The notes under the pieces were generated by a model. The model was given only the letters and a program-made list of their open reading frames with translations, ran no database searches and had not been told where the DNA came from. A stretch of DNA of 64,000 bases. Source: an uncultured Pseudodesulfovibrio sp. (GTDB taxonomy: Bacteria; Desulfobacterota; Desulfovibrionia; Desulfovibrionales; Desulfovibrionaceae). The position numbers and the translations under genes are program-made. The stretch is from NCBI RefSeq assembly GCF_963677845.1, contig NZ_OY782498.1, forward strand, positions 2,549,518-2,613,517, given 5' to 3'. Shown here piece by piece: positions 12,768 through 51,410 of the stretch. Position 1 is the stretch's first letter; every line of letters starts with the position of its first letter.

Positions 12768-12861
12768 GGAAGCGTTTCGTCACCGGTGTGGCGCTTGGTC
12801 TTCAAAACCAATGTACGGCAGTGATGTCGTAGGCAGGTTCGACTCCTGTACGCTTCCGCCA
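12768..12861 (+). tRNA. selC: tRNA-Sec (anticodon TCA), integration target of the island
   Basis: The 94-base gene has a GGAAGCG acceptor pairing with CGCTTCC, then GCCA; an anticodon stem TTGG/CCAA with loop containing TCA; a long variable arm (TACGGCA/TGTCGTA); and the T arm GCAGG-TTCGACT-CCTGT. These are the hallmarks of selenocysteine tRNA. The 3' part from 12795 is repeated at 51264-51332, marking it as an attachment site. Its presence implies that the host makes selenoproteins. Confidence 0.95.
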
Positions 12862-12863
12862 TT
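12795..12863 (+). repeat. left attachment repeat (attL), 3' part of functional tRNA-Sec
   Basis: This segment, TTGGTCTTCAAAACCAATGT through GCCATT, repeats at 51264-51332. Five mismatches all fall in the variable arm and keep the arm paired in both copies. Confidence 0.88.
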
Positions 12864-12870
12864 GTTAACA

Positions 12871-12900
12871 AAAATGCCGACCAGCAATGATCGGCATTTT
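12871..12900 (+). terminator. terminator after tRNA-Sec (island-borne)
   Basis: AAAATGCCGA pairs with TCGGCATTTT around a ten-base loop. It lies inside the island border and so would have been acquired with the element. Confidence 0.8.
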
Positions 12901-26013: not shown

Positions 26014-26025
26014 AGTAGTTGTTCC

Positions 26026-28002: not shown

Positions 28003-28103
28003 TATCTTCCTCAAATCTCAGCTTTAATCGCTTTCATGCGATCCTTGATTTGTTTGCTATGTGCCTTGGCTATACTATCACCCCAAGGACTCCCTAACAT
28101 AAA

Positions 28104-31756: not shown

Positions 31757-31764
31757 AATTACTC

Positions 31765-36185: not shown

Positions 36186-36866
36186 ATGAACTCCCAAATG
36201 AGTTCCCAGGAAATCAGTGAATTAGCAGAGGCGATGATCCAGGTGCAGCAGACACTATCTCCTGCGCTCAAGGACGCAAAGAACACATTTACCAACAGCC
36301 GTTATGCCACGCTCCATTCCGTTATGAATGCATGCCGAGACGCTCTCCTTGAGCACGGCATCTGGCTCACCCAGTATCCTGTGTCGGTCGAGACTAATAA
36401 GCTCGGCCTTGTGACCAAGATCGTCCACGCTGAGACAGGCCAATGGCAGGCATCTTTGTTAACCATGCCATTATCTAAAAATGATCCTCAAGGTTATGGC
36501 TCGGCTATGACTTATGCTCGTCGTTACGGATTATCGGCATTGATCGGTATCGTGACGGAAAGTGACGATGACGGAGAAATGGCCTCTCATCCTGAGCAAA
36601 CTCAAAATGGAGGTTTCCAATCCCTTGATTCCAAGGATCGAACAACCGCTACGGCACCAATATCGTCTCCCAAGGGTAATGCCCCAGGAGCATCAAATCT
36701 GCCTCGTTTAGACGGTGTTCAATACCGGTCTGGAACAGCCAACGATGGCAAGAAATGCGTTTTGGCAACTGGTGATACTCATCCCAAGAAAGAATTCCTT
36801 CGTAAGGCTGGATTTCGTTGGGATGGAACACGAAAAATTTGGTGGAGGTATGCAGATGCAGCATGA
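36186..36866 (+). CDS. ERF-family single-strand DNA annealing protein
   Basis: This 226-residue protein has the ERF signature region: ALKDAKNTFTNSRYATLHSVM, then LPQ-like QYPVSVE, and GSAMTYARRYGLSALIGIV with SDDDGE. ERF proteins promote annealing of complementary strands in phage recombination. The C-terminal part (FLRKAGFRWDGTRKIWWRY) forms a small DUF-like tail seen in some ERF proteins. AAGGAGG precedes the ATG. It heads the plus-strand recombination module. Confidence 0.87.
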   Translation: MNSQMSSQEISELAEAMIQVQQTLSPALKDAKNTFTNSRYATLHSVMNACRDALLEHGIWLTQYPVSVETNKLGLVTKIVHAETGQWQASLLTMPLSKNDPQGYGSAMTYARRYGLSALIGIVTESDDDGEMASHPEQTQNGGFQSLDSKDRTTATAPISSPKGNAPGASNLPRLDGVQYRSGTANDGKKCVLATGDTHPKKEFLRKAGFRWDGTRKIWWRYADAA

Positions 36867-38085
36867 CGACACCAAAGCACAGGGCTTGTTGCGGCTTCTT
36901 ACCCAAGGACTTCTAACTCATGCTGAGAAGAAGACTGACAGTGAGCTTGGAGACCGTAGTCAGTACATAGGAATGTCGGACATAGGGAAAGGCATGGAAT
37001 GTCTCAGGTCTGCTGTGGCCAGCAAGCTTGGTTTAACCACCTTCCCTACCGCATCTGCCATAGATGGACTCGCTCTCAAGGATCTTGCTAAAATTCTTGG
37101 TCGGCAGATCATCCTGCAACGTGGCCATTGGCAGGAACACGGCATTGAGCAGGCTCTTCTAGCCAATGGTGTAAAGCTGGTTCCGCAGCTTGAGATAGCC
37201 ATTGAGCATGACGGTGTACCTATCAAAGCCCATTTGGACTTCACGTTAGTATGGGGTGGACAACGACCTGCTGTGCGGATTCTGGAGCTCAAGAGTAACG
37301 AGCGTGTCCCGGAGACTTTGTATCCTTCGTATGAGGCTCAGCTATATGGCCAGGTAGGATTGCTCAAGGCCTGTTGGGACAAACCGTGTTTCTCTGTGGC
37401 TGAAGAGCATAATCGCATTGGCTTTGCCGGAGCGACATTCGCACAGGCTGTACGCTGGTTGTTTGGAGTAGATATTCCTGATGACCCTGATACTGTGGAC
37501 ATAGAAGCATGGGTACTTTCCATTTCCATATCCGAAGTGAAACCATTCGGGCCATATCTACCGGAAGAGGACATGCTAGGTGTGTGCTTGCAGACGGCAG
37601 TGGCAATCTGGCGTACAGTTGAAGATGTCCGATCTGGCAGTTTGGAATTGAACGACCTGGCCTACTGCCGTGGCTTTCATCCTCTGTGCGACTGGTGTGA
37701 CGTCAACTCTGACTGTCCGAAGTTCCAGGCTATGACCATCCCTGAGGATTCTGCGTGTGGCTTGGAACTGGAAGAAATTGCTCTTCTAAAGGAAAAGAAG
37801 GCCGCTCTGGAGAAACGGATTGCTGAGACAGAGGAACGCATCAAGCAGTCATACCGACTGGTTGGCTCAAAGGACTGGATATCAGCAGGAGATCGTCGTT
37901 TTCGGTTATCTACCATCGCAGGCCGAAGAACACTTGATCGTTCCCTGGTCTCGGACACTCTAACCTCACTAATAGGTGACGAACTCAAGGCTCAAGCCGC
38001 TCTAGAGAAATGTGAAAAGGCAGGCAGGCCATATGAACGGTTATATGTCAGCAAAATTAATAAGCCTCTGAAATCAGCAGCGTAG
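36856..38085 (+). CDS. RecB/Cas4-like PD-(D/E)XK nuclease
   Basis: The ATG at 36856, seven bases after GGAGG, is favoured and overlaps the ERF stop codon; 36850 is an alternative. The 409-residue protein has the RecB-type core: H-E...A at WQEHGIEQALLANGV, the Asp in AHLDFTLVW, then ILELKSN (ExK) and YEAQLYGQVG (QxxxY). Near residue 280 four Cys in CRGFHPLCDWCDVNSDC may hold an Fe-S cluster as in Cas4/AddB. A C-terminal coiled coil follows. It is the likely exonuclease partner of ERF. Confidence 0.83.
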   Translation: MQHDDTKAQGLLRLLTQGLLTHAEKKTDSELGDRSQYIGMSDIGKGMECLRSAVASKLGLTTFPTASAIDGLALKDLAKILGRQIILQRGHWQEHGIEQALLANGVKLVPQLEIAIEHDGVPIKAHLDFTLVWGGQRPAVRILELKSNERVPETLYPSYEAQLYGQVGLLKACWDKPCFSVAEEHNRIGFAGATFAQAVRWLFGVDIPDDPDTVDIEAWVLSISISEVKPFGPYLPEEDMLGVCLQTAVAIWRTVEDVRSGSLELNDLAYCRGFHPLCDWCDVNSDCPKFQAMTIPEDSACGLELEEIALLKEKKAALEKRIAETEERIKQSYRLVGSKDWISAGDRRFRLSTIAGRRTLDRSLVSDTLTSLIGDELKAQAALEKCEKAGRPYERLYVSKINKPLKSAA

Positions 38086-38104
38086 ACATAATAAAACAAG
38101 CAAG

Positions 38105-38137
38105 AAAAGCGCATCTCCATCGGGAGGTGCGCTTTTT
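38105..38137 (+). terminator. terminator inside the recombination module
   Basis: GCGCATCTCC pairs with GGGAGGTGCGC around ATC and is followed by TTTTTC. It separates ERF/nuclease from the CobS-like gene and may reduce read-through. Confidence 0.75.
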
Positions 38138-38158
38138 CATTTTCTATAGGAGAAAAAG

Positions 38159-39142
38159 ATGAGTGACATCCTGAATGAATTACAAACCCTGCAACCTTTC
38201 GAACATGACGCAGGCGAAGTCTTTAGCGGCAAGAAATCCAAGCGTAAAGTGCATGGATTCGAAGACCCGTCTTCATTCACCCCGGATCTTAACCCGGAAT
38301 ACCTGTTCCACGACTCCAGTCGCGACGCCGTGGTCTGGTTCATGGAGTTGTCCGACCCGCTGTACGTGTTTGGTCCTGCTGGGTCTGGAAAGACGAGCCT
38401 CATCAAGCAACTTGCAGCCAAGCTGAACTATCCGGTTTTCGACATCACCGGGCATGGACGTTTGGAATTCCCGGATATGGTCGGCCATCTGACCGTGGAG
38501 AACTCGAATATGTCCTTCCAGTACGGACCGCTTGCACTTGCCATGAAATTTGGTGGGCTGTTCCTGCTTAATGAAATCGATCTTCTCGATCCAGCGACCG
38601 CTGCCGGTTTGAACGGCATCTTGGACGGTGATCCGTTGTGTATTCCCGAGAACGGTGGGGAAGTAATCAAGCCTCATCCGCTGTTTCGGTTTGCAGCCAC
38701 AGCTAATACCAACGGTGCCTCTGACGAAACCGGACTCTACCAGGGAACACTTCGGCAGAACCTGGCTTTCATGGATCGCTTCTGGCTCTGCGAAGTCGGC
38801 TATCCCAAACCAAAAGACGAACGAGAGCTGCTGCATCGCAAAGCTCCTAAACTACCCAAGGAAATACGGACCAAGATGGTGGAATACGCCAACGAGGTCC
38901 GTAAATTATTTATGGGTGAGGCTGACGGCAATTACCGCGACACCATTGAGGTGACGTTCTCGACCCGTACCCTCATTCGTTGGGCAGATCTCACTGCCCG
39001 ATTTCAACCTCTCGCAAGACAAGGCATCCAGCCTTTGACCTACGCGCTTGACCGTGCTCTCGGCTATCGTGCCAGTCCTGAAACCAGGACCATTCTGCAT
39101 GAACTGGCTCAACGCTTATTCCCACAAGAAACTAAGGAGTAA
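38159..39142 (+). CDS. CobS/MoxR-like AAA+ ATPase
   Basis: The 327-residue protein has Walker A FGPAGSGKTSL (about residue 77), pore-loop region GHGRLEFPDMVGH, Walker B LFLLNEIDLLDP, sensor 1 FRFAATANTN, and the arginine-finger region QNLAFMDRFW. This matches CobS/MoxR-type ATPases, which work with VWA proteins. A VWA gene lies two genes downstream. GGAGAAAAAG precedes the ATG. I recall a similar cobS-like gene next to bet/exo genes in SXT/R391 ICEs. Confidence 0.86.
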   Translation: MSDILNELQTLQPFEHDAGEVFSGKKSKRKVHGFEDPSSFTPDLNPEYLFHDSSRDAVVWFMELSDPLYVFGPAGSGKTSLIKQLAAKLNYPVFDITGHGRLEFPDMVGHLTVENSNMSFQYGPLALAMKFGGLFLLNEIDLLDPATAAGLNGILDGDPLCIPENGGEVIKPHPLFRFAATANTNGASDETGLYQGTLRQNLAFMDRFWLCEVGYPKPKDERELLHRKAPKLPKEIRTKMVEYANEVRKLFMGEADGNYRDTIEVTFSTRTLIRWADLTARFQPLARQGIQPLTYALDRALGYRASPETRTILHELAQRLFPQETKE

Positions 39143-39144
39143 TT

Positions 39145-40113
39145 ATGGATACCCATACGGATATCACTGTGCTCGACAATTTGATGGCCCTGAACCTGGA
39201 CGTAAACATCTGGACGGCTCGGAAGAAACTGACACCGGCTGACTTCGGCGGTGCTGATTTACCTCCTGAAGAGCTTGCTTCGCTTGGCAGTAAGAAGATT
39301 TGCAACCCACAGGAATTGCGTATCTTCGGGACGCTGAAGGCCCGTGCTGTGAACTTACTGGATAGAACCGGTGTTCGCTTTCTTGGAGGCTGGGCTATTC
39401 CTAAAGAGAAGGCTGATGAGATCGTGGTCGAATTGACCACCATTCGGAGCGATTTCCTGGCTGCAAAAGAGCAGTTCCTCAACCGGTATGACGAGGCCGT
39501 GCGTGACTGGATAACACAGCATCCTGGTTGGGAGAATTTGATCGGAAGTTCTACGGTCAGTGCGGATTACGTGCGCAGTCGTATCGGATTTAAGTGGCAG
39601 TTGTTCAAGCTGTTGCCTCCAACGGATGACGCCATGCACCAAGGTTTGCAGGATGAAGTCAAAGATCTTGGTGGGACTCTCTTCGATGAGGTGGCTAAAG
39701 CCGCTACGGATACATGGAAGAGATGCTTTGAAGGTAAAGCCAAGGTGACACACAAAGCCTTGTCTCCCTTACGCTCCATCCACACCAAGCTGTCAGGCCT
39801 GAGCTTCGTTGAACCTCGTGTAGTTCCGGTTGTAGACTTGCTAGACACGGCATTCAACCGTGTGCCTGCTCGTGGATACATCCATGGCAGCGCATTGGTC
39901 ATGCTGCAGGGAGTGGTGTCGATGCTCCGTGATCCGGCAACTCTGGTGGCTCATGGCCAGAAGATATTGGATGGACAAGACTCATCTGAAATACTGGCTG
40001 GATTGGTTGCGGATACAATTCCTCCATTACCGGAGGTAGAGCTTGTGCCAAAGACTGACTTCGTTCCTGAACCGGTGCATCAGCGCCAGATCGATAGCCA
40101 TGGACTCTGGTGA
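39145..40113 (+). CDS. DUF3150 protein
   Basis: The 322-residue protein shows the DUF3150 pattern: LDNLMALNLDVNIWTARKKL, FGTLKARAVNLLDRTGVRFLGG with the W-A-I-P that follows, and the helical region ADYVRSRIGFKWQLFKL. It begins two bases after the CobS-like stop codon, with AAGGAG upstream, and its stop overlaps the VWA gene. DUF3150 proteins regularly accompany CobS-like and CobT-like genes in mobile elements; the function is unknown. Confidence 0.8.
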   Translation: MDTHTDITVLDNLMALNLDVNIWTARKKLTPADFGGADLPPEELASLGSKKICNPQELRIFGTLKARAVNLLDRTGVRFLGGWAIPKEKADEIVVELTTIRSDFLAAKEQFLNRYDEAVRDWITQHPGWENLIGSSTVSADYVRSRIGFKWQLFKLLPPTDDAMHQGLQDEVKDLGGTLFDEVAKAATDTWKRCFEGKAKVTHKALSPLRSIHTKLSGLSFVEPRVVPVVDLLDTAFNRVPARGYIHGSALVMLQGVVSMLRDPATLVAHGQKILDGQDSSEILAGLVADTIPPLPEVELVPKTDFVPEPVHQRQIDSHGLW

Positions 40114-40118
40114 TCGTC

Positions 40119-41705
40119 ATGAAGAACACACTCATCATGAAGTCGCTACCCATGGTCGCATCAGTCCTTGGCAGCAAGTATGGAGTAAGGGTCAAAATTG
40201 GTGGGAAAGGAGCATACACAGATGGGGATACCATCCATCTGCCTTCACTTCCCTTGGAGTGCAGTGAGACTCTCATTGGTTTGGCCAGAGGCTATGTGGA
40301 TCACGAAGCAGCCCATATCCGAGAAACTCGGTTCGATTGGCTGAAGCTGGCGAACCTGACTCCGCTGGAGATGCACGTCTGGAACACCTTCGAGGACTGG
40401 CGCGTTGAGCACCGACTAGCTCGTCTCTTTCCAGGATGTAGGCAGAACTTCAATTGGCTGATCCAACATCTGTTCGGCGATGACAATGAGCAGCCAATTG
40501 ATCCGGCAATGGCAGTCCTCAATTGGCTGCTGTTGTCGGTTCGTTCTTGGGATGTACCGGCACTGCATGGCCAGTGTGACCAAGTAGGCGCATTCGTCGA
40601 AGCCCATTATCCCGGTCTGATTGCTCGGCTAAACCTGATCCTGCAAAAGGTGCGTAGATACTGCGGTTCAACTCAGGATTGCATTCTCTACGCTCGTGAG
40701 GTCGTTGCTGTTCTTAAAGACCAAACGGCTTCCCAGGTGCCTCAAAATCAGCAAGTAAAATCCGAAATAAAGCCCTCAAAAAATGAGGGAAGTGAAGTAC
40801 CCATAGAGCGTGTTGCTGGCACTCCAGAACAACGTTTGACGGAATTGCTGGCAGCAAACGATGGCGATCTACCCAATGACATAGGAGAAGCTCTTGCGGA
40901 TCGTTTACTGAAGGAAAGCCCTCACGACCCCAACGAATCCTTGCAGGTGGCTCAGCTTGGCACCAAACCGATCAAGCCGATAAAGCCAGTACACGCAACT
41001 GAAGCCAAGAAAGCTTCCGTTGCCTTACGGACTCAGCTTCAAGGACTTCTGCAATCATCCGTGCTGACGAGAAGCAGAGTCGGTAGGCATGGCCGCCTGG
41101 ATTCGAGACAACTGCATCGATTGTCCGTGGCAGACTCGCGAGTCTTCAGACAAGAAGGTCGGAAGGTTGGCATCAACACTGCCGTTCACATCTTGCTTGA
41201 CTGTTCTGGCTCCATGAGACGACGCATACAGCTAACCACACAGGTATGCCATGCGGTTGCCACGGCTTTGGATGCTATCGACGGAATCAACGTAGGAGTG
41301 ACTGCCTTTCCGGCTGGCTCTCCGGCTGATGATGGAGACAACGGGACTGGGCCGACGATTTGTCCTGTTCTTAAGCATGGCGGGCGGATGCACGACAACG
41401 TCGCCATCAATGCCACCGGCTGCACTCCTTTGGCAGAAGCCCTCTGGTGGACTTTGCAGCGAGTTGTACCACTTGCTGAAAGCAGAAAGATCGTTCTGAT
41501 CTTGACCGACGGTGATCCTGATTCCTTTAACGTGGCTCTTGATGCCATTGAGGAAGGCAGGCGTTTCGGTGTTGAAATCTATGGCTTGGGTATCATGTCT
41601 GAAGCCATCACTAAAATCCTTCCTAATCACAGTCGCACTATCAACGAGTTGTCCGAACTGGCTTCCGCCATGTTTGGGATGCTTCGTAGTGCGTTGATTA
41701 AATAA
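40119..41705 (+). CDS. CobT-like VWA-domain protein
   Basis: The start is either GTG at 40110, overlapping the previous stop codon, or ATG at 40119. The 528-residue product has an N-terminal putative metallopeptidase-like segment (RGYVDHEAAHIRET) with W..FEDWRVE, a charged low-complexity linker, and a C-terminal VWA domain with MIDAS motif LLDCSGSM and LILTDGDPDS. It resembles CobT, the partner of the CobS AAA+ ATPase in cobaltochelatase; here, next to ERF and nuclease genes, a DNA-linked remodelling role seems likelier than cobalamin synthesis. Confidence 0.82.
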   Translation: MKNTLIMKSLPMVASVLGSKYGVRVKIGGKGAYTDGDTIHLPSLPLECSETLIGLARGYVDHEAAHIRETRFDWLKLANLTPLEMHVWNTFEDWRVEHRLARLFPGCRQNFNWLIQHLFGDDNEQPIDPAMAVLNWLLLSVRSWDVPALHGQCDQVGAFVEAHYPGLIARLNLILQKVRRYCGSTQDCILYAREVVAVLKDQTASQVPQNQQVKSEIKPSKNEGSEVPIERVAGTPEQRLTELLAANDGDLPNDIGEALADRLLKESPHDPNESLQVAQLGTKPIKPIKPVHATEAKKASVALRTQLQGLLQSSVLTRSRVGRHGRLDSRQLHRLSVADSRVFRQEGRKVGINTAVHILLDCSGSMRRRIQLTTQVCHAVATALDAIDGINVGVTAFPAGSPADDGDNGTGPTICPVLKHGGRMHDNVAINATGCTPLAEALWWTLQRVVPLAESRKIVLILTDGDPDSFNVALDAIEEGRRFGVEIYGLGIMSEAITKILPNHSRTINELSELASAMFGMLRSALIK

Positions 41706-42408: not shown

Positions 42409-42425
42409 TTGGCACAAGTCTTGAT
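42409..42425 (+). promoter_or_regulatory. sigma-54-like promoter of the helicase-PLD-CARF operon
   Basis: TTGGCAC (-24 element) is followed after five bases by TTGAT (-12 element). The consensus is TTGGCAC-N5-TTGCA/T, so only the usual GC reads GA. A transcript from here would start near 42436, about 35 bases before the helicase ATG. The operon's last gene encodes a sigma-54 activator, which supports the call. Confidence 0.6.
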
Positions 42426-42470
42426 ATTCTGTAAGTATCACTTATATCAAACACCACTTGAGGATTCACA

Positions 42471-45248
42471 ATGGCACTATTACATTTTGCAAACATAACG
42501 AACCACAGGCCTGAAATTTTGATGTCAAAAACAGCCTATGGTTTAAATCTATTCCGTCAGTTTTTGTTGAAAGTTAAAAATCATCAAGAAAGCACTGACA
42601 ACGTAAAACATCTAGCTTGGGAGCAGATCAATAAACCCACTAATACTGAGAACACCAAGACTGCCCCTGATGAATCTCAAGGCGTTTGGATTCAATTAAA
42701 GAATCCGGATATTTCAGATTCTGAAATGGAAACAGCCCTCCGGCATTTTTTAGATGAAAGCGTCGACACAATATATGAAGCAGACCATGCAAACTGGAAA
42801 GCAGTAGGTACTCCTGCAACAGAATGCTCGCATTGCAAAAAAATGTCATATGCGACCGAGGAGCATGCATGGGAGATTGCTATTTCCTGTCGCAAAGACC
42901 TCAATGTGTACGAATGCCCCAAAGGAAATGGTTGGCATTTGACTGGCAGACATCACTCTGCCGTACCTTTCAGGCGCGACAATGCGCTGACTATCCTTGA
43001 CCGCTCCGCCGATGAGGAACAGTTAAAACTCGACCGCTTGCCTCAGCTTCCATACATAGTCATACGCCCTAATACATACCAATTGAGATGCCAGCTTGAT
43101 GCAATAGACAAGCTAAAAGATGCTCCAGACTCTCATCATTACCCTTTATTAAGGCTGTTTGAAGCTAGTAACCATGCAAAATGGCCGGAGATCACAATCG
43201 GCAGTGACCAACTTTATTTTGCAGATGCTTTTAATCGATATCTTTCATCCAAGCCTGAACCCCATCACGTAAAAGAATGGGAGGTCCTGACTGATGAGAA
43301 TCGCCCTGGTAATAACGAGCAGCGAACTTTTGTTAAGAAAGCCCTAAACACCCCTGACTTTGCTTTCCTTGAGGGGCCTCCAGGATCTGGAAAAACAACT
43401 GCAGTTTGTGAATTAGTACTTCAGCTTATCAAGCAGGGGAAACGAATATTACTCTGCGCCTCAACACATGTCGCAGTAGACAACGTGTTGGAACGACTCA
43501 TGGCTAAGACCAATCCTCTACGAAGCAGCATCATCCCAATTAGGATTGGAGATCGTTCTAGCATTAGTAAGAAGGTTCGCCCTTGGGAACTACGGGAGTT
43601 TGTCAAGACAGAAACAAAAAGACTGATCAATGGACTCCAAAAAGAGGCGAATCCCTCTCCTGCCCAAAAAGAAATGCTTCGTCAGCTTCGTCACGGAAAA
43701 GGAACAATACAAAAGACTGTGCTGACAGCTTCCAACCTGGTCTGCGGAACAACTATTGGCATTCTTCAGCACCCTGAAATTAAAGCCAAAGGGCAATCGC
43801 CAACTTTTGATGTGATGATTATCGATGAGGCGTCAAAGACGACATTTCAAGAATTCTTGGTGCCAGCACTCCTTGCCAAACGGTGGATTCTAGTTGGCGA
43901 TCCAAAACAACTTTCGCCCTATGTAGACGACGAGGCTACTGCCGTTAACATCGCCCCATCATTGCCTCAGCAATACAAGCGTGATGCTTGCATAGACGTA
44001 TTTCGAGCCATGCAGTCTGATCCAAAATTCCGCTTCTGCTCAATTGTCGCTACTGACAATGAAGAAGAACAACTTTTTTACATCAAGCAGGCGCTTAAGA
44101 ATGAAGTCAGATTGTGGTGTGAAGGGAATGATCCAGAGGAACTCCCTTATGCTTCCATGATTGTAGCGAGCCCTCAATTCCTAAGAGACAATGTTAAACG
44201 ACTACCACTCGACATTTCTTTTTTGCGAACCCCTGAGAAAATGCCAAGCGCAATTTGCAGGCGAGTTGCTTCATATAACTCAACCAAATCACGTTCACAC
44301 GTAAAGGAAGCCCCTTCTTGGGAAAATGAAATAGCTTGGAGGCGTGCCCGCCATTATGAGCAACGAAAAGAGATTGGCCGATCTTTTCATCTAAGCGAGA
44401 AAAAACTTACCGGGGAAAAATTGGCAAAGCAGTTGGAAGCGCTTTTACCCGCAGAAGACACTTCTGTCTCGACTTCGATCAACAGTGTTTCTCGCATAGC
44501 CTTTCCTTCGATTCTGGAATCTCTACAGGAGGGATTTCAGCGAGAAGATGAGCAGCGAGACCCAACAGCCCTATCTGACGGAATTCCCAAAGGAGCTTTA
44601 GAACAGCGTCAGGTGTTACTAACCTATCAGCACCGCATGCATCCTGAAATAGCACAGTTTCCTCATGAGACCATATACAGCGAAAGAGCCTTACTCTCGT
44701 CGCCTGAAATGGAGCGGAAAAGAGAATGGGCCTACAAGCCAGGAAGAAGGCGAATCGTATGGAATGACGTTAAGGGGATAGTAAATAGAAAAGGGAATTA
44801 TAATCCAGGGGAAGCTCAAGAAGCGATTCAAGAATTAAAGGACTTTGATTCTTGGACCGCCAGGAACCCTAAACATGACGGAGGCCCATGGCAGGTTGCG
44901 GCTCTCTCATTTTATCGAGGTCAAGAGCAAGAGATACAAAGACAAATGCAAAAATGGACTCAAACTAAGAATCGACGCCATTTTCATCGAGGGAAAAAAG
45001 AAGCTCCATATCTAGAAATTGAAGTTTGTACCGTCGACAGATTTCAAGGCCATGAAGCGGACTTGGTTCTTCTTAGTTTTATGAATGACCATCCGACCAG
45101 CTTTCTTCAGAGCCCCAATCGACTGAATGTCGCTTTGACAAGAGCTCGTTATCAGCTTGTCGTATTCGGAAATAGACAAAAAATGAAAAAAGCATCTGGC
45201 GTTCTAGGCGCATTCGCTCAGGAACAACATTGGGGGGTGGCATTATGA
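42471..45248 (+). CDS. UPF1/DNA2-like SF1 helicase (Mokosh-like component)
   Basis: This 925-residue protein has an N-terminal region of about 280 residues with four Cys in CSHCKKM...C..., then an SF1 helicase (COG1112-type): Walker A EGPPGSGKTTAVCEL (about 302), ASTHVAVDNVLERL, Walker B MIIDEASKTT with VGDPKQLSPY, then TYQHRMHPEIAQFP, VDRFQGHEADLVLLSF and LNVALTRARYQLVVFG. These are the motifs of UPF1/DNA2/NAM7-family RNA or DNA helicases. The gene starts 35 bases after a sigma-54-like transcription start, and its stop codon overlaps the next ATG. A PLD nuclease follows two genes on, recalling Mokosh. Confidence 0.86.
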   Translation: MALLHFANITNHRPEILMSKTAYGLNLFRQFLLKVKNHQESTDNVKHLAWEQINKPTNTENTKTAPDESQGVWIQLKNPDISDSEMETALRHFLDESVDTIYEADHANWKAVGTPATECSHCKKMSYATEEHAWEIAISCRKDLNVYECPKGNGWHLTGRHHSAVPFRRDNALTILDRSADEEQLKLDRLPQLPYIVIRPNTYQLRCQLDAIDKLKDAPDSHHYPLLRLFEASNHAKWPEITIGSDQLYFADAFNRYLSSKPEPHHVKEWEVLTDENRPGNNEQRTFVKKALNTPDFAFLEGPPGSGKTTAVCELVLQLIKQGKRILLCASTHVAVDNVLERLMAKTNPLRSSIIPIRIGDRSSISKKVRPWELREFVKTETKRLINGLQKEANPSPAQKEMLRQLRHGKGTIQKTVLTASNLVCGTTIGILQHPEIKAKGQSPTFDVMIIDEASKTTFQEFLVPALLAKRWILVGDPKQLSPYVDDEATAVNIAPSLPQQYKRDACIDVFRAMQSDPKFRFCSIVATDNEEEQLFYIKQALKNEVRLWCEGNDPEELPYASMIVASPQFLRDNVKRLPLDISFLRTPEKMPSAICRRVASYNSTKSRSHVKEAPSWENEIAWRRARHYEQRKEIGRSFHLSEKKLTGEKLAKQLEALLPAEDTSVSTSINSVSRIAFPSILESLQEGFQREDEQRDPTALSDGIPKGALEQRQVLLTYQHRMHPEIAQFPHETIYSERALLSSPEMERKREWAYKPGRRRIVWNDVKGIVNRKGNYNPGEAQEAIQELKDFDSWTARNPKHDGGPWQVAALSFYRGQEQEIQRQMQKWTQTKNRRHFHRGKKEAPYLEIEVCTVDRFQGHEADLVLLSFMNDHPTSFLQSPNRLNVALTRARYQLVVFGNRQKMKKASGVLGAFAQEQHWGVAL

Positions 45249-46330
45249 TTAAAGAGATGATCAAGAACGTCGTTTTAAAACGAAAAATTGATTTTCAGGT
45301 GTGGCGCATCAAGGCCACGATAGCCAAGGCTGAGGATCGTCCTGAATACATGCCAATTCTTATGCAATTGAAAGAATATGGCCAATGTTCAGCTAAGGAT
45401 GTAGCCGCACACTTGTTCTGTGAAGAGATTGCACGGGAAAGCGTGGCAGAACGGATGTTGGACACTGCTGTTAGTCTAAAGCTGGCTGACCGAAACCGCA
45501 GAATGTATTCCCTCACAGAATCCGGCGAAAAGGCAATCCAGAGTAAACAGATCTTCGTCCCGGAGGAAGGCACTTGGGAAGTATGGATTAGCCAAGATCC
45601 ACTGCTCCCTTTTAATATCCTCAGGCTGAAATCTTTTGAAGAACCGAAGTCATACCAAGAAAACCATCAACGCCGAGTTATTGAGAAATTACCACAGATT
45701 GTTTTCGACGACTTAAAAGCTAAAGAAGGAAACCCATGCCTCGGAGGTGAATTAATACGAATTGATAGCTGCGAACGAAAGGCTGAGAAGGTTAATGATC
45801 ATGTGTCTATCCCAGCAGAATGGAATCTTTTTCAGCAATCCATAAAGCTAAAACCGAAGAAAGGGTCGCTTGAAATGCAAGCCCCGCAGATTGATAGCGC
45901 TAGTGCATGGATGGATTTACTGCGAAGCGCAAACATAGAGGAATCGTGGAATTCTGAATCGGAAACGCTGATGCGAAAATTCCAAGATGTAGATCAGACA
46001 TCACGCTTCTCGATGCGTGAAACGGTAAGGATCAACAAACCGACAATCTCTAGAGTGGGCCAGTTCGATAAAATCGATTTACCTGATGTCCCTATATCTC
46101 CAGCCACAAACTCGGATGCGCAAGAATGGGCTGCCTGGCAATTGGAGAACTCAATTGATCGAGTGATGACTTCTGCCCGGTACGAGGAACTCTGCTCTAA
46201 AACGAAAGCCACATTCGGCAACTTCCAAATAGAACTACCAGAACGCGACAGTTTAGCGAAAGAGCTTTGGAACAAACAGATTGATGATCGTTCTTGGAAT
46301 TTAATGGCAGCAGCCGATTGGAATCTATAG
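45245..46330 (+). CDS. winged-helix protein of the helicase-PLD operon
   Basis: The ATG at 45245 overlaps the helicase stop codon (ATGA), with GGGGGGTGG upstream. The 361-residue protein has an N-terminal winged-helix domain (about 30-100: ILMQLKEYGQCSAKDVAAHL, RMYSLTESGEKAI). The remaining C-terminal region, about 260 residues, has no recognisable family (WEVWISQDPLLPF, AAWQLENSIDRVM). The tight overlaps show that it is an obligate part of the operon. It may be a nucleic-acid-binding adaptor between helicase and nuclease. Confidence 0.65.
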   Translation: MIKEMIKNVVLKRKIDFQVWRIKATIAKAEDRPEYMPILMQLKEYGQCSAKDVAAHLFCEEIARESVAERMLDTAVSLKLADRNRRMYSLTESGEKAIQSKQIFVPEEGTWEVWISQDPLLPFNILRLKSFEEPKSYQENHQRRVIEKLPQIVFDDLKAKEGNPCLGGELIRIDSCERKAEKVNDHVSIPAEWNLFQQSIKLKPKKGSLEMQAPQIDSASAWMDLLRSANIEESWNSESETLMRKFQDVDQTSRFSMRETVRINKPTISRVGQFDKIDLPDVPISPATNSDAQEWAAWQLENSIDRVMTSARYEELCSKTKATFGNFQIELPERDSLAKELWNKQIDDRSWNLMAAADWNL

Positions 46331-46339
46331 GTGGGGACT

Positions 46340-47905
46340 ATGACAACCATAATCGAAAAAAAGCATGAAAAGACCGTTGATCAAACCATGTTGGAATTGC
46401 CTCCAGTTTGGATAAAACAAGCAGAAACATCTACACTGTCAGAGGAGTTCGGTTCCATTTTCACCTCTGGCAAGAACCGAGTCGTTGCCAGAGAACTTGA
46501 AGAACGAATTCTTGAAGCCGAGCACAGCATTGTTTTGTGTAGCTTTCTTTTGGCAGATGAAAAAATCGAAGATGCACTTTTCGAAGCATCACAAAAAGGT
46601 GTGCGCATCTTTGTGATGCTTGCCTGTGAAACACGTTTGGATGCGGATACGCCAGACGATGATTTTGGAAAGATGTGCCTTAATCAGCACAAGAAAATGC
46701 TGAAGCGTTTCGCGGGAAAAATGTTCATTCGTTCTGCCCCCTTCTTCCACGCAAAGGTGGTCTTGATAGACGCCCTGTCAAACTCAGACAACTCTTCAGG
46801 CATCTTGCTTACAGCTAATCTGACCCAGGAAGCCTTAGAGCGAAATGAAGAAATTGCGATCGAAATGTCTCCGTCTGAAGTGACGGAAGTCGCTCAAGTC
46901 CTAGGCTGGGCTCTCTTTGAGTACGCAGAGCATGAAGTCGACGTGAAATCTCACTTTTCCCCAGTAAAGCCTCTCAAGGAACTAAGCTATCCACGGCAGT
47001 TGGAACACATTTGCTATACGTCTGAAGAGGAGACAGGAATACGAGACAGGACAATGGCCCTCATTGAAGGAGCGAAAGAAGAACTGCTCATTTCTAGCTT
47101 CGGATGGGACAGCGGTCACCCTACTGTTGAAGCCATTTGTCAAAAGGCTCGCGATGGCGTGCGGGTGACTATTCTTTCTCGCATCAGGCCAGCAGCAATG
47201 GATGCCCTCATCAAAATGCGAGAGGCGGGAGCCGAAGTGCTGGGGTTTAACTGGCTGCATGCAAAGGCAGTCTGGAACGAGTCGGGTGACGCTTTGGTCA
47301 TGTCAGCCAATTTCCAAAAGCATGGAATGGATGAAGGATTTGAGTTGGGAGTAAAGTTGTCCGGCCAACGCTCTTCAGATTTGCACAATTGTCTACAGGC
47401 CTGGAAACGAAGCGCACCCTGGCAACTCGAGATAAAAGCCAGACTTGGTGAAGTTGTTGGGAAGGTCAAACTGTGCGAACCCGGCAAGCAGGCGGAGGTT
47501 ATTGAAATCTCGAAAGGAGAAACGATTCCTTTGTCAGATATTACTGCTCGCTGCGCAACATCCTTGGATGCTGAAGCCCAATTCCCCGAACTAAACTGGA
47601 GAGGACATCCGCACCACGCTGTGAATTTCGTCTGGAAGGTTGTCGCTCCTCAATTGCCTCCGAAAAGCAAAGAGGTCTTCTGGTATGAGGAAGAGAAAGG
47701 CACCCCCTCCTCATCAGAAAAGCAGAAGAAGCGAGCAAAGCAAATCAAACACTCATACGACCCAAAGGTTTTTCGGCTTCCTTCTGGAGAAAAGGTTATT
47801 GCTATCAATGAAGCTAGTGAACTTAATAAAGCTCTAGCACTCAAACTCAATCCCGAGTTTCTAAACGCCAACATTGTAGTCACCGAACAGACTGGAGGTG
47901 TATAG
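46340..47905 (+). CDS. phospholipase-D-family nuclease with two HKD motifs
   Basis: The 521-residue protein has two PLD repeats: HAKVVLIDALSN with TANLTQEALERNEE (about residue 137) and HAKAVWNESGD with MSANFQKHGMDEG (about 307). The order and spacing are those of bacterial PLD-type nucleases or helicase-associated PLD proteins. The C-terminal 200 residues are not recognised. GGTGGGG precedes the ATG at 46340, nine bases after the previous stop codon. As in Mokosh, a PLD nuclease paired with a UPF1-like helicase suggests cleavage of phage RNA/DNA intermediates. Confidence 0.82.
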   Translation: MTTIIEKKHEKTVDQTMLELPPVWIKQAETSTLSEEFGSIFTSGKNRVVARELEERILEAEHSIVLCSFLLADEKIEDALFEASQKGVRIFVMLACETRLDADTPDDDFGKMCLNQHKKMLKRFAGKMFIRSAPFFHAKVVLIDALSNSDNSSGILLTANLTQEALERNEEIAIEMSPSEVTEVAQVLGWALFEYAEHEVDVKSHFSPVKPLKELSYPRQLEHICYTSEEETGIRDRTMALIEGAKEELLISSFGWDSGHPTVEAICQKARDGVRVTILSRIRPAAMDALIKMREAGAEVLGFNWLHAKAVWNESGDALVMSANFQKHGMDEGFELGVKLSGQRSSDLHNCLQAWKRSAPWQLEIKARLGEVVGKVKLCEPGKQAEVIEISKGETIPLSDITARCATSLDAEAQFPELNWRGHPHHAVNFVWKVVAPQLPPKSKEVFWYEEEKGTPSSSEKQKKRAKQIKHSYDPKVFRLPSGEKVIAINEASELNKALALKLNPEFLNANIVVTEQTGGV

Positions 47906-49326
47906 TGGCAGGCAATACTCTCCTCTGCTGGAATTCTGTACGGGCTGGAAATGACGTACTAAACAATGCGGTCAAATCTTTGAAAAATCGTAAGATAGAG
48001 GTCGATAAGGTTTGGTTACTTCTTCAAAAAGGGCATGATTCTCAACTCTCTACGCAAAATGGAGTTGAACTAACCCCGCAACTCCTTGAACTAGAGGACC
48101 CGACACAACATAAGCCGATATATGACGCAATAGTGAGTGAGGTCTTGCCTCAAATCCCTCTATCTACCAATTTGCACATTAATATATCACCAGGCACGCC
48201 TGCCATGCATGCCGTTTGGCTAATTTTGCATGCGGGAGGACGACTACCTCAGGACACAAAACTGTGGTCATCACAGTTTAATCCTAAGACCAAACGGTCA
48301 AGCATAAAACCTGTAGAATTCCCAATAAACACATACCTTTCCGAGATTCGAAGGGTCGTATCCAAAGAGGATGGTTTCGCAGCGTATGATTTAGAACCTA
48401 AGTCAGAGAGCAGAAAAGAAGCTTTTGCACAGCTAAAAAGGTATGCTGACCTTCCCGGCATTCCTATACTAGTGCTTGGAGAAAGAGGGACAGGAAAGAC
48501 TCGCCTGATTGAAATGACTCTCGGGGCACTCAAGCAAAAAGAGATTGTAACAGTTGCCTGCGGCTCTCTGGACTCCCATCTCGCCGAAAGTCAACTTTTT
48601 GGTCATGTCAAAGGAGCTTTTACCGGAGCGGATCAGGACCGCGACGGGCTCTTGAAAGCTGCAAATGATGGGATACTCTTTTTAGACGAGATACAAGATC
48701 TTCCGAAAGATATTCAACGAAAGCTTGTAAGAGTACTCCAAGACAACAAGAGACGTTTTCGTCCTGTCGGCTCCGACAAAGAAGTGTCGGTCAACTTTGA
48801 ACTCGTCTGCGCCTCAAACAAAGACACGAAAACTCTCCAGAAGGTTTTAGACGCTGATTTTTATGATCGCATATCAATGACGTTGATTGAAATCCCTCCA
48901 TTACGCACGAGCCGTCAAGATTTGGAAAGAGATTGGCAACAGGTGTGGAACGAACTTTGTTTAGCATCCAAGCTTCCTTCCATAGCCCCCAGCTCCCCTG
49001 CTCTGCTCGATATTCTGCGCAATGACCCTCTACATGGGAATCTTCGAGATCTTCAGAAACTCGCTGTATTGATGATGGCGTGGTGGTCTGAAAAAGACAT
49101 TGATAAAACAATCTCTGAAGCCGTGAGACGTTGGAAGAAACAACGGGAACAAGAATACACTCAAAATGCATTTGAAGAAACTTCTTCTCGTGAAGCATAC
49201 TTAAAGCGGTGCAAACATGAATTCGCTAGTTGGGCTAAGCAAAAGTACATAACTTGGGAGAAGGCCGCGAAAGCTCTTAAGTGCAGCGAGAAGACCCTTC
49301 GAAATGATGCGACATTTAAAAAATAG
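47905..49326 (+). CDS. sigma-54 activator with RtcR/CARF-like sensor domain
   Basis: The GTG start at 47905 overlaps the previous TAG and follows GGAGGTG. The 473-residue protein has an N-terminal CARF-like domain (about 1-165, with W.LLQKGHDSQ and NISPGTPAMHAVW resembling the ligand-loop motif of RtcR/CARF proteins). The central AAA+ domain has Walker A GERGTGKTRL, GAFTGAD (sigma-54 contact loop), LFLDEIQDLP and the arginine-finger region. The C-terminal Fis-type HTH is ITWEKAAKALKCSEKTLRND. It should sense a nucleotide or RNA-end signal and switch on a sigma-54 promoter, most likely that at 42409. Confidence 0.82.
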   Translation: MAGNTLLCWNSVRAGNDVLNNAVKSLKNRKIEVDKVWLLLQKGHDSQLSTQNGVELTPQLLELEDPTQHKPIYDAIVSEVLPQIPLSTNLHINISPGTPAMHAVWLILHAGGRLPQDTKLWSSQFNPKTKRSSIKPVEFPINTYLSEIRRVVSKEDGFAAYDLEPKSESRKEAFAQLKRYADLPGIPILVLGERGTGKTRLIEMTLGALKQKEIVTVACGSLDSHLAESQLFGHVKGAFTGADQDRDGLLKAANDGILFLDEIQDLPKDIQRKLVRVLQDNKRRFRPVGSDKEVSVNFELVCASNKDTKTLQKVLDADFYDRISMTLIEIPPLRTSRQDLERDWQQVWNELCLASKLPSIAPSSPALLDILRNDPLHGNLRDLQKLAVLMMAWWSEKDIDKTISEAVRRWKKQREQEYTQNAFEETSSREAYLKRCKHEFASWAKQKYITWEKAAKALKCSEKTLRNDATFKK

Positions 49327-49920: not shown

Positions 49921-51102
49921 CTATTTATTGGGAAAGAGAACCACCTTTCTCTTGCTCTCATCATCCTGCATAGCATCTGTAATAATATCCTCCGCCACAT
50001 TCGCAGCCTTCTTCAATGCCTCGTCATGCAAATGCGCATACCGCTGCGTCATCTGAGGACTCTTGTGCGTCAGGAGCTTCTGGAGCGTATACATATCCAC
50101 CTTTCCGGAACTGGCGAGCATGGATGCATAGGCGTGACGTAAGCCATGGAGTGGACGGAAGTCCTTCGGAAGTCCTGCCCGCTCCTTGATGCGATTCACA
50201 GGAGTACGGACATCTTTACGCTGCCCACCGTTTTGTCCTGGGAAAACATACGGGCTTTTCGTTTGATTGTGGGACTCAAGCAGTTCTCGTGCTGCCGCCA
50301 TCATGGGGATCTTTTGTGACACGCCGCCCTTCGGATCATCTAGCAAAATAAAACCGCGATCAAAGTCCAGATCTTTCCACTTCAGGCGGAAGATCTCGCC
50401 ACGACGCATACCGGTGAACAAGGCCAGTTTCATCATTCTAGCGACATCGATGTTGGAGTCTTCGTCGATGGCCTTAAGGAGTGCCTTGAGTTGGTCGGCT
50501 GACAGGTCCTCAGTCTTGACGTTGTCCACCAGCGGGATCTCAATACTGAGCTTGGACGGATCGGGCATCGAGCACAGACCTTTTTTTACCCCGAAATTGA
50601 TGAGTCGCTTCAGGAGAGAAAGGATGAGCTTCACAGTTTGTGGAGATTTCTTATCCTTCTTGAGCAATCGTAGACGCAACCGGTCCACGTCGAGCGTGAT
50701 GATATCGGCAGGTACTTTATTACCGAACTCCGGTTTGAGATATTTCTTGTAGCGACTCTTGTCGGGAAGACGGCCTTTGTAGTTGGTCTTTTGGGCTTCG
50801 TATTCTTTCCACAAACGGGTAATGGTCGGACGCTCTTCGCGCTCCTTGCGTTCTGCCTCTTCCTTCTCTCGACGTTCCTTGTTTGACTGCTGGTCGCCGT
50901 CGATTCGCATGCTCCGAATCATGGACGCACGAGCCGGGGTCATATCGTCTCTTTTTTGCCTTCCAGCCTTCTCTTCAACCGTATTCCCATCTTTTCGGTA
51001 AATGATGTAATAGATCTTCTCAGGCTTCCCGTTTACCTTGTTCGCGCCTTCTACGTACCAAACGCCTGGATATCCGGTCTTAAATCTTTCCTTTCTCGGC
51101 AT
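49921..51102 (-). CDS. int: tyrosine recombinase (integrase) of the selC island
   Basis: The start at 51102 follows GGAGCGAAG. The 393-residue protein has an N-terminal arm-binding domain (TGYPGVWYVEG...), a core-binding SAM-like domain (about 90-190), and a catalytic domain with Arg in FTGMRRGEIFRL, HxxR in LHGLRHAYASML and the nucleophile Tyr in SPQMTQRYAHL. All catalytic residues are present. It lies about 160 bases inside the right border, next to arm-type repeats, so it is the island's own integrase. Confidence 0.92.
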   Translation of the reverse strand: MPRKERFKTGYPGVWYVEGANKVNGKPEKIYYIIYRKDGNTVEEKAGRQKRDDMTPARASMIRSMRIDGDQQSNKERREKEEAERKEREERPTITRLWKEYEAQKTNYKGRLPDKSRYKKYLKPEFGNKVPADIITLDVDRLRLRLLKKDKKSPQTVKLILSLLKRLINFGVKKGLCSMPDPSKLSIEIPLVDNVKTEDLSADQLKALLKAIDEDSNIDVARMMKLALFTGMRRGEIFRLKWKDLDFDRGFILLDDPKGGVSQKIPMMAAARELLESHNQTKSPYVFPGQNGGQRKDVRTPVNRIKERAGLPKDFRPLHGLRHAYASMLASSGKVDMYTLQKLLTHKSPQMTQRYAHLHDEALKKAANVAEDIITDAMQDDESKRKVVLFPNK

Positions 51103-51116
51103 CACTTCGCTCCGTT

Positions 51117-51151
51117 GCACCCAACAAAGTACCCAACACTATACCCAACAC
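51117..51151. repeat. integrase arm-type repeats, right end
   Basis: Three copies of (T)ACCCAACA(C/A) in tandem; the 23-base block at 51129-51151 is identical to 12915-12937. They lie between the integrase promoter region and the tRNA remnant. Confidence 0.65.
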
Positions 51152-51263: not shown

Positions 51264-51332
51264 TTGGTCTTCAAAACCAATGTTGGGCAGTGATGTCCAG
51301 GGCAGGTTCGACTCCTGTACGCTTCCGCCATT
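51264..51332 (+). repeat. right attachment repeat (attR), 3' remnant of tRNA-Sec
   Basis: This 69-base copy of the tRNA-Sec 3' part ends in GCCATT. It lacks a 5' half and is not a functional tRNA. Its variable arm TTGGGCA/TGTCCAG differs from the functional gene but keeps pairing. Confidence 0.87.
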
Positions 51333-51410
51333 ATTGAATAAATTCATTCGCATATAATAATTTGTTTTGTCCTTAGGGGTAATCCATCGGACCATACCCT
51401 AATAAACATC

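What the first reader, a model, noticed from the sequence alone, without database searches (positions are those of the whole stretch)
42409..49326. Four-gene operon: UPF1-like helicase, winged-helix protein, double-HKD nuclease and CARF-like sigma-54 activator
Seen in sequence: four genes with stop/start overlaps or a 9-base gap, in order SF1 helicase, winged-helix protein of unknown family, PLD nuclease, and an AAA+ sigma-54 activator whose N-terminus carries an RtcR/CARF-like NISPGTPAMH motif. Known: helicase plus PLD nuclease is the core of Mokosh anti-phage systems, and RtcR couples an RNA-end signal to sigma-54 transcription. Inference: this is a signal-induced, Mokosh-like system in which damage or infection makes a nucleotide or RNA ligand, the CARF activator fires the sigma-54 promoter, and helicase and nuclease are made on demand. 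The winged-helix gene and the dedicated CARF-sigma-54 regulator are not parts of the Mokosh types I know of.
Basis: partly seen in the sequence, partly recalled or inferred. Interest (0 to 1): 0.9.

Follow-up and report, generated by a model that had tools for sequence, protein, structure and literature searches.

The report
CARF-regulated Mokosh-like defence operon
A four-gene cassette, often on mobile DNA, in distantly related bacteria pairs a helicase-nuclease machine resembling a known anti-phage system with its own built-in signal-sensing switch protein, so it may be an immune system that is made only when a danger signal appears.

Summary
Four co-directional, tightly packed genes (42471-49326) encode a UPF1-like SF1 helicase, a winged-helix protein, a double-HKD PLD nuclease and a CARF-AAA+-HTH sigma-54 activator, behind a sigma-54-like site at 42410. 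Of 17 winged-helix loci found, 15 (window included) have all four genes in the same order, in Gammaproteobacteria, Rhodobacterales and the window's host. At least 12 of 17 are on mobile DNA: seven with SXT/R391-type flanks, four plasmids, and here a 38-kb selC island absent from both sister genomes examined.

It is Mokosh-like but fails the Mokosh type I test. The helicase matches only the helicase part of MkoA, not its N-terminal kinase region. The winged-helix gene weakly but reciprocally matches the N-terminal half of MkoB, and the PLD family more weakly its C-terminal half, so the 'extra' gene may be half of a split MkoB. The unusual part is the operon-encoded CARF activator, a kind already known beside type II CoCoNuTs and R-M systems. 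Three Rhodobacterales activators lost GAFTGA, and their operons lack the sigma-54-like site.

Most likely an auto-amplifying, signal-induced nucleic-acid-degrading defence cassette. No function was tested. New variant of a known kind.

The parts
42410..42425 (+). sigma-54-like -24/-12 site TGGCACAAGTCTTGAT, 61 bp before the helicase ATG
   Evidence: TGGCAYRN4TTGA lies 53-61 bp before the helicase start in 12 of 12 testable loci whose activator keeps GAFTGA, in 0 of 3 that lack it. The -12 element is TTGA, not consensus TTGC.
42471..45248 (+). UPF1-like SF1 helicase with MkoA-like helicase core, without the MkoA N-terminal region; Cys-rich (zinc-ribbon-like) stretch in the N-terminal third
   Evidence: Pfam AAA_11/AAA_12; PADLOC MkoA 291.6 bits but only profile positions 617-1081 of 1112, whereas two real MkoA match 5-1105 and 5-1108; UPF1/SMUBP2/DNA2 in PDB; C..C...WH pattern
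45245..46330 (+). winged-helix protein (wHTH at about 45332-45550), family without a name; possible counterpart of the MkoB N-terminal half
   Evidence: Model pLDDT 82.7, MarR-like wHTH residues 30-102; weak reciprocal HMM match to MkoB
46340..47905 (+). double-HKD PLD-family nuclease (HKD1 46748-46771, HKD2 47258-47281, the latter with E for D); GTG 46331 is an alternative start
   Evidence: PLDc_2 1.7e-20; DrmC profiles up to 76.5 bits; homologues in L040 and L048 match the MkoB C-terminal part; HKD motifs
47905..49326 (+). CARF-AAA+-HTH sigma-54 activator (CARF about 47905-48354 with NISPGTPAMH 48181-48210; AAA+ about 48400-49074 with GAFTGA 48613-48630; HTH about 49192-49323)
   Evidence: PADLOC RtcR_PspF1--CARF_AAA_HTH 555 bits, 152 bits on the N-terminus alone; Sigma54_activat; alignment; motif check. 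HTH rests on the full-length profile and a weak Pfam hit (0.025)
49921..51120 (-). tyrosine integrase of the island that carries the operon
   Evidence: Phage_integrase 4.7e-31; PHROG integrase 1.3e-60
12795..12873 (+). attachment-site copy at the 3' end of tRNA-Sec (selC), left end of the island
   Evidence: 79-nt repeat of 51264-51342, 89% identical; tRNA-Sec 12768-12861
51264..51342 (+). second attachment-site copy, right end of the island
   Evidence: in both sister stretches examined (2 of 2) the right flank (51264 to about 53.3-53.5 kb) adjoins the left flank ending at 12874, i.e. the site is empty

Best explanation
It is a mobile, signal-induced defence cassette: a Mokosh-like helicase-wHTH-PLD machine put under its own CARF sigma-54 activator. 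Proposed working: (1) a low basal level of the last gene's product waits with its CARF domain empty; (2) infection or damage makes a ligand, most likely an RNA end or oligonucleotide, that binds CARF and lets the AAA+ ring assemble; (3) the ring opens sigma-54 RNA polymerase at the site 61 bp before the helicase gene; (4) the whole operon is transcribed, including the activator itself as last gene, giving positive feedback; (5) the helicase, held to the PLD nuclease by the winged-helix protein (a split MkoB), loads on foreign or damaged nucleic acid and the nuclease cuts it. Shown here: gene order and its recurrence, domains, conserved promoter-like site, activator inside the operon, mobile context with other defence genes. 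Inferred: steps 1-5 as events, the ligand, the complex, the substrate, and protection from phage.
For: 15 of 17 winged-helix loci have all four genes in the same order. In the plasmid collection the winged-helix and PLD queries each hit 4 records, the same 4, and the CARF query hits those 4 plus one distant record. Promoter-like site and GAFTGA go together: 12 of 12 testable loci with both, 3 of 3 with neither. The genome has sigma-54. MkoA is the best PADLOC model of the helicase. A profile of 9 MkoB-like proteins has this winged-helix gene as best non-MkoB match among 1357 ORFs (E 0.0013, MkoB positions 52-126), followed by the PLD of locus L051 (E 0.005, positions 397-494). The selC island also holds a type III R-M system and an HEC-05/Snf2-HKD cluster. 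Seven copies have SXT/R391-type flanks, four are on plasmids. The winged-helix protein diverges fastest (31.9% window-to-Gamma against 53.8, 42.5 and 52.8%), as might be expected of a part facing phage.
Against: No experiment. The MkoB links are weak: hhalign probability 7% (E 0.0049; reversed controls 0.48 and 0.78) for the winged-helix, 32% (E 4.8e-4) for the PLD, and only E 0.11 for the PLD with the first, smaller MkoB alignment; no single PLD domain scores better than 0.38, the window's own PLD is not among the MkoB-profile matches, and winged helices are common. The -12 element is off consensus. What sets the basal activator level is unknown: a 9-of-12 sigma-70-like match ends at the activator start (47877-47906) but such matches are no more frequent than in shuffles. 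RtcA, required for RtcR induction in Salmonella (PMC7790460, abstract), was not found here, so an RtcR-type ligand would have to arise otherwise. Rhodobacterales copies lack both GAFTGA and the site, so sigma-54 control is not universal.
Confidence: 0.57

Rival explanations
1. RNA quality control or repair response rather than immunity: a CARF activator senses broken RNA in stress and induces a UPF1-like helicase plus nuclease that clear damaged RNA.
For: RtcR-like activator; [quoted passage not shown] helicase nearest UPF1/SMUBP2/DNA2 among solved structures.
Against: Rare and mobile: 0 of 59 relatives and 0 of 394 other phylum genomes have the winged-helix gene, and the island is missing from 2 of 2 sister sites examined; a housekeeping RNA system should be more constant. 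RtcA/RtcB not found.
Confidence: 0.15
2. A reduced CoCoNuT: the RtcR-CnuH-CnuE half of a type II/III CoCoNuT that has lost McrBC.
For: Same modules as described by Bell et al. (PMC11090510): UPF1-like helicase, wHTH protein, nuclease (two PLDs in type III-C), RtcR homologue. The only further CARF relative on plasmids (Polaromonas; CARF part E 3e-4, whole activator 30% over 481 aa) heads a gene row that by annotation and order reads like a type II CoCoNuT. The MkoB profile itself weakly matches that CnuE-like protein (hhalign E 0.007).
Against: No McrB/McrC gene in the operon. Helicase closer to MkoA (best BLAST piece 63-82 bits in five MkoA-like proteins) than to the Polaromonas CnuH-like protein (52 bits); the winged-helix profile does not match the CnuE-like protein (hhalign 0.27, reversed 0.22). 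One CoCoNuT only was compared; type III-C was not on hand.
Confidence: 0.17
3. An element-maintenance or competitor-exclusion module of ICEs, plasmids and islands, acting on incoming or competing DNA rather than on phage.
For: 7 of 12 genome-collection loci share SXT/R391-type flanks; plasmid copies include two conjugative ones.
Against: Ten flank proteins scanned in L042, L051, L046 and L048 show no conjugation gene (part of the flanks only); nuclease systems of this kind can act on both phages and plasmids, so the two readings overlap.
Confidence: 0.11

Closest known systems
Mokosh type I (MkoA + MkoB)
   Same: UPF1-like helicase followed directly by a wHTH-like part and a PLD part, tightly packed genes, found on plasmids
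   Different: Helicase lacks the MkoA N-terminal kinase region; the MkoB-like part would be split in two genes and the PLD has two HKD motifs; a CARF sigma-54 activator is built in
Type II/III CoCoNuT (CnuH, CnuE, CnuB/C) with RtcR homologue (Bell et al. 2024, PMC11090510)
   Same: RtcR-like CARF activator with a UPF1-like helicase, a wHTH protein and a nuclease
   Different: No McrBC pair in the operon, no TerY-P triad; activator is last, not first, gene; helicase closer to MkoA in the one comparison made
RtcR of the rtcBA RNA-repair operon
   Same: CARF-AAA+-HTH architecture with GAFTGA, behind a sigma-54-like site
   Different: 206.9 bits against the RtcR cut-off of 650; RtcA/RtcB not found in the genome; lies inside a helicase-nuclease operon
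DISARM DrmC (PLD nuclease)
   Same: PLD domain, 80.1 bits to NF038319
   Different: Below the curated cut-off of 133; the operon's other three genes have no DISARM profile as best match

Membership tests
Mokosh type I | MkoA-family helicase core | tested here: met
   PADLOC PDLC03920 291.6 bits over profile 617-1081
Mokosh type I | MkoA N-terminal (kinase) region | tested here: not met
   No kinase among the Pfam hits listed for the helicase (best 25 of 29 shown); MkoA profile 5-616 unmatched, while two MkoA annotated as serine/threonine kinases match 5-1105 and 5-1108
Mokosh type I | MkoB: wHTH-like N-part and PLD in one protein | tested here: not met
   Separate genes in the 15 four-gene loci; parts match the two MkoB halves only weakly; window PLD has no MkoB match at E <= 0.01, its homologues in L040 and L048 do (1.1e-10, 3.5e-11)
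Mokosh type I | Protects against phage | not testable with these tools
   Needs bench work
CoCoNuT (type II/III) | CnuB/CnuC (McrB GTPase and McrC) | tested here: not met
   None among the four genes; no McrBC (PF10117) among the 20 neighbouring proteins scanned with Pfam
CoCoNuT (type II/III) | CnuH/CnuE kinship | tested here: inconclusive
   Helicase 52 bits to one CnuH-like protein; winged-helix no match to its CnuE-like neighbour; one CoCoNuT only, identified by annotation and order
RtcR (orthologue) | NCBIfam RtcR equivalog cut-off | tested here: not met
   206.9 of 650 bits
RtcR (orthologue) | rtcA/rtcB in the genome | tested here: not met
   0 of 1 for PF01139 and PF01137 in the whole genome; 9 and 5 of 14 control genomes ring
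CARF superfamily | N-terminal CARF sequence profile | tested here: met
   PADLOC RtcR_PspF1 152 bits, CARF-HEPN 26 bits, Csx1/Csm6 17 bits on residues 1-162 alone; Pfam Csm6-CARF only 12 bits, below its cut-off of 27.5
CARF superfamily | CARF fold in structure | tested here: inconclusive
   Model pLDDT 68.5 has a Rossmann-like order with a last beta hairpin, but the fold search was filled by the AAA+ domain
Sigma-54 activator (bEBP) | AAA+ with Walker A/B and GAFTGA | tested here: met
   Met in the window; GAFTGA in 13 of 16 activators examined (window and 12 Gamma loci), not in the 3 Rhodobacterales ones
DISARM | DrmC cut-off | tested here: not met
   80.1 of 133 bits

The most novel reading that the evidence does not exclude
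The cassette is a self-amplifying immune switch: nucleic-acid ends made by infection, and then by the PLD nuclease itself, are the ligand of the CARF activator, which raises transcription of nuclease, helicase and of itself until the ligand is gone. In Rhodobacterales the same CARF-AAA+ protein, having lost GAFTGA together with the sigma-54-like site, has been re-wired to another polymerase form or acts directly on the helicase-nuclease complex.
Probability: 0.25. Interest if true: 0.82.

Novelty: new variant of a known kind. Interest (0 to 1): 0.62.

Why it matters
If the reading is right, this nuclease system carries a transcriptional switch of its own, with a CARF sensor, in a compact four-gene cassette that moves on ICEs, plasmids and islands. 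That makes the open question of what RtcR-like CARF activators sense outside RNA repair directly testable with one promoter fusion. It also brings Mokosh-like and CoCoNuT-like parts together and suggests that the MkoB N-terminal region is a separable winged-helix module.

Tried and rejected
Viral contigs: profile scans with the winged-helix and the activator alignments gave 29 and 103 pattern stretches, none a relative, so no sign of phage carriage. E. coli genomes: no match to the window operon; the Shewanella copy matched only 47 bp of flank in 4 of 5426 genomes. MkoB family in the host's phylum: 0 of 395 at E <= 1e-20, and the controls were silent too, so uninformative. Phage records: 63 matched the activator, none over 80% of it; I saw 10 rows, AAA+ or RtcR-like. 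The activator's N-terminus matched 22 of 394 other phylum genomes weakly (best 1.7e-8); I did not look at their neighbours, so what else such activators control there is open. PDB sequences: none for the winged-helix profile or the PLD at the limits used. Winged-helix model: the search says nothing about residues outside 30-102; no claim of a new fold. Inverted repeats upstream and palindromes in relatives gave no site that I could recognise in the window. Sigma-70 and terminator scans were not above shuffles.

Dropped rows and limits: of 13 plasmid regions fetched to find Mokosh (from 116 records) 9 with a downstream MkoB-like gene were used (L054-L056, L059-L063, L065); L057, L058, L064 and L066 were not. 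5 of the 9 were checked as MkoB by PADLOC, 4 were taken by position and annotation. The 1357 ORFs are mechanical ORFs of at least 80 codons from loci held, with some duplicates. Identity means use 8 of 15 four-gene loci; the seven ICE copies are represented by L040 alone. In L046 my motif search found one HKD only. Class names of the genome-collection loci are from the organism names and recall, except those shown in plasmid records.

Papers: the 2020 CARF classification paper could not be read, so I cannot say that it did not list this operon. 'Not found in print as a system' rests on searches in an open-licence library only.
Full report
OBSERVATION. Four + strand genes fill 42471-49326. The helicase stop overlaps the winged-helix ATG at 45245 (ATGA), a 9-base gap precedes an ATG at 46340 for the PLD gene, and the activator GTG at 47905 overlaps the PLD stop by one base. 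Pfam gives AAA_11/AAA_12 for the helicase, PLDc_2 for the nuclease and Sigma54_activat for the activator; the winged-helix protein has only two hits below cut-off. NCBIfam, PADLOC and PHROGs show nothing for it at the limits used.

RECURRENCE. tblastn of the winged-helix protein found 4 plasmid records and a profile scan of 84,980 species genomes found 12 loci (the scan uses two peptide patterns, so this is a lower bound). With the window that is 17 loci. 15 of 17 have helicase, winged-helix, PLD and activator in this order; in two of them the helicase frame is interrupted (L045, where the winged-helix ORF is also shortened, and L049). The Klebsiella plasmid copy keeps PLD and activator, with the winged-helix gene cut by IS elements. 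The Planctomycetota locus L050 has helicase and an extended winged-helix protein but no PLD or CARF relative beside them. In plasmids the PLD query hits 4 records, the winged-helix query 4, the CARF query 5; the same 4 recur. It is rare near home: 0 of 59 relatives (35 of the genus) by single protein and 0 of 394 other genomes of the phylum by profile.

MOBILITY. Here the operon ends a 38-kb island between two 79-nt copies of the tRNA-Sec 3' end (12795-12873 and 51264-51342) with an integrase beside the right copy. In both sister stretches examined (2 of 2, from G025 and G035) the right flank adjoins the left flank, so the site is empty there. The island also carries a type III R-M system with two Mod genes and an HEC-05/Snf2-HKD cluster. 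Seven of the 12 genome-collection loci (L040, L041, L043, L044, L045, L047, L049) share long flanks; 47 bp of that flank match E. coli chromosomes at a dsbC-like gene between traA and traC. One of the seven, L041, is contig LIQF01000019, described as part of the SXT/R391 element ICEMfuInd1a; Table 1 of that paper lists genes of 2730, 1110, 1533 and 1446 bp in hotspot 2, the lengths found here, the first named heavy-metal transporter CzcA (PMC5122569, passages). So the genes are in print as unexplained ICE cargo. With 4 plasmid copies and the window's island, 12 of 17 loci have direct signs of mobile DNA.

PROMOTER AND ACTIVATOR. A TGGCAYRN4TTGA site lies 53-61 bp before the helicase start in the 12 loci that have GAFTGA in the activator and an upstream region to look at: window, L036, L037, L040-L045, L047, L049, L051. 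Seven of these are one ICE lineage, so the number of separate upstream contexts is nearer six. L039 has GAFTGA but its upstream region was not testable. The three Rhodobacterales loci (L038, L046, L048) lack both. Walker A, Walker B and the SPGTPAM motif are present in all 16 activators examined. From recall, not from a call: Rhodobacter NtrC also lacks GAFTGA and works with the housekeeping polymerase. The pattern occurs once in both strands of the window, but 32 sites in 64 kb, itself included, reach its score on the general consensus, and the -12 element is not canonical; the claim rests on conservation. The activator is the last gene of the operon that it most likely drives, so positive feedback is expected. 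A 9-of-12 sigma-70-like match ends at the activator start (47877-47906), but such matches are not above shuffles. Sigma-54 is present in the genome; RtcB and RtcA were not found, with controls ringing.

KINSHIP WITH MOKOSH AND COCONUTS. I fetched 13 plasmid regions around helicase matches and used the 9 with a downstream MkoB-like gene (5 of them checked by PADLOC). A profile of these 9, searched against 1357 ORFs of the loci held, has as best non-MkoB match the window's winged-helix protein (E 0.0013, MkoB 52-126); next is the PLD of L051 (E 0.005 for the whole protein over 397-494 and 426-467, no single domain better than 0.38), then a gene beside another helicase (L057, 0.015); the other PLD copies come at 0.13-2.7 and the window's own PLD is not among the matches. 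In reverse the winged-helix profile finds 4 of the 9 MkoB (E 0.002-0.02). hhalign gives E 0.0049 (probability 7%) for winged-helix against MkoB, reversed controls 0.48 and 0.78, and 4.8e-4 (32%) for PLD against MkoB, reversed 0.71; with the earlier 5-row MkoB alignment the values were 0.0055 and 0.11. PADLOC's MkoB profile matches the L040 and L048 PLDs at 1e-10 and 3.5e-11 over its positions 309-590 and 313-564. Taken together this is weak but collinear: genes 2 and 3 may be a split MkoB.

Bell et al. describe UPF1-like helicases (CnuH) with an elongated wHTH fused to nucleases (CnuE), two PLDs in type III-C, and RtcR homologues beside type II (PMC11090510, section 9 whole, section 11 part 1). 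A distant relative of our activator on a Polaromonas plasmid (CARF part E 3e-4; whole activator 30% over 481 aa) heads such a row by annotation and order: DUF4258, VWA, PP2C, kinase, helicase, unknown, AAA, unknown. The operon's helicase gives 52 bits to that CnuH-like protein and 63-82 bits (best piece each) to five MkoA-like proteins; the winged-helix profile does not match its CnuE-like protein, while the MkoB profile does weakly (hhalign E 0.007). So the effector core leans to Mokosh, the regulator to CoCoNuTs, on one CoCoNuT only.

RATE. Mean identity between window and Gamma copies is 53.8% (helicase), 31.9% (winged-helix), 42.5% (PLD) and 52.8% (activator), on 8 representative loci. The winged-helix protein changes fastest, which fits, without proving, a recognition part under pressure from phage.

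MECHANISM. Best reading: ligand-bound CARF lets the AAA+ ring activate the sigma-54 promoter; the operon, activator included, is amplified; helicase, winged-helix bridge and PLD degrade target nucleic acid. Only the anatomy is shown. The ligand is open: RtcR binds tRNA fragments with cyclic phosphate and needs RtcA (PMC7790460, abstract), which was not found in this genome.

VERDICT. Real, recurrent, mobile. A Mokosh-like core without the kinase region, with a dedicated CARF sigma-54 switch: a new variant of a known kind. It was not found named as a system in the papers searched, but the main CARF classification of 2020 was not available, and PADLOC's profile of this activator family shows that such proteins were catalogued before.

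Noticed in passing
window 23020-30065 (-): Type III restriction system with one Res and two tandem Mod paralogues (90% and 75% identical over two 300-nt stretches), on the same selC island.
   Followed up: partly
window 30086-35741 (-): HEC-05 protein, a 257-aa protein with only a PHROG match of unknown function, and a Snf2 helicase matching the 'HKD+Snf2' model: looks like another defence cluster.
   Followed up: partly
window 36186-41705 (+): ERF recombinase, a 456-aa orphan, CbbQ-type AAA, DUF3150 and a CobT-like VWA protein in a row, shortly before the operon.
   Followed up: no
L038, L046, L048 (activator genes): Rhodobacterales activators lost the GAFTGA loop but keep Walker A/B and the CARF motif, and their operons lack the sigma-54-like site: possibly a coupled change of polymerase control.
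   Followed up: partly
L036 9418-12707 (-): Vibrio aerogenes plasmid: a cas2 gene and a 3.0-kb gene annotated cas1 (much longer than usual Cas1, from recall) about 2 kb from the operon.
   Followed up: no
L036, L051, L042 upstream regions: Palindromes such as ACACCTATAGGTGT (L036) and near-copies before the sigma-54-like site, possible activator-binding sites; none recognised in the window (seen by eye).
   Followed up: no
L042 3447-6929 and 14679-20039: In Aliikangiella the operon is flanked by an RNase_H_2-SF1 helicase protein, a serine recombinase and an McrBC-like pair on the other strand.
   Followed up: no
L050 6277-8333: Planctomycetota relative: helicase plus a winged-helix protein with about 150 extra C-terminal residues and a small following gene, no PLD or CARF: an alternative arrangement.
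   Followed up: no
L041 7275-10004; PMC5122569 Table 1: The helicase gene of this operon is named heavy-metal transporter CzcA in the published table of ICEMfuInd1a, which hides the system.
   Followed up: yes
L058 7611-8462: A short relative of the helicase (45% over 168 residues) next to IS26 on a Rhodobacter plasmid that also carries a predicted tetracycline-efflux gene; described only.
   Followed up: no
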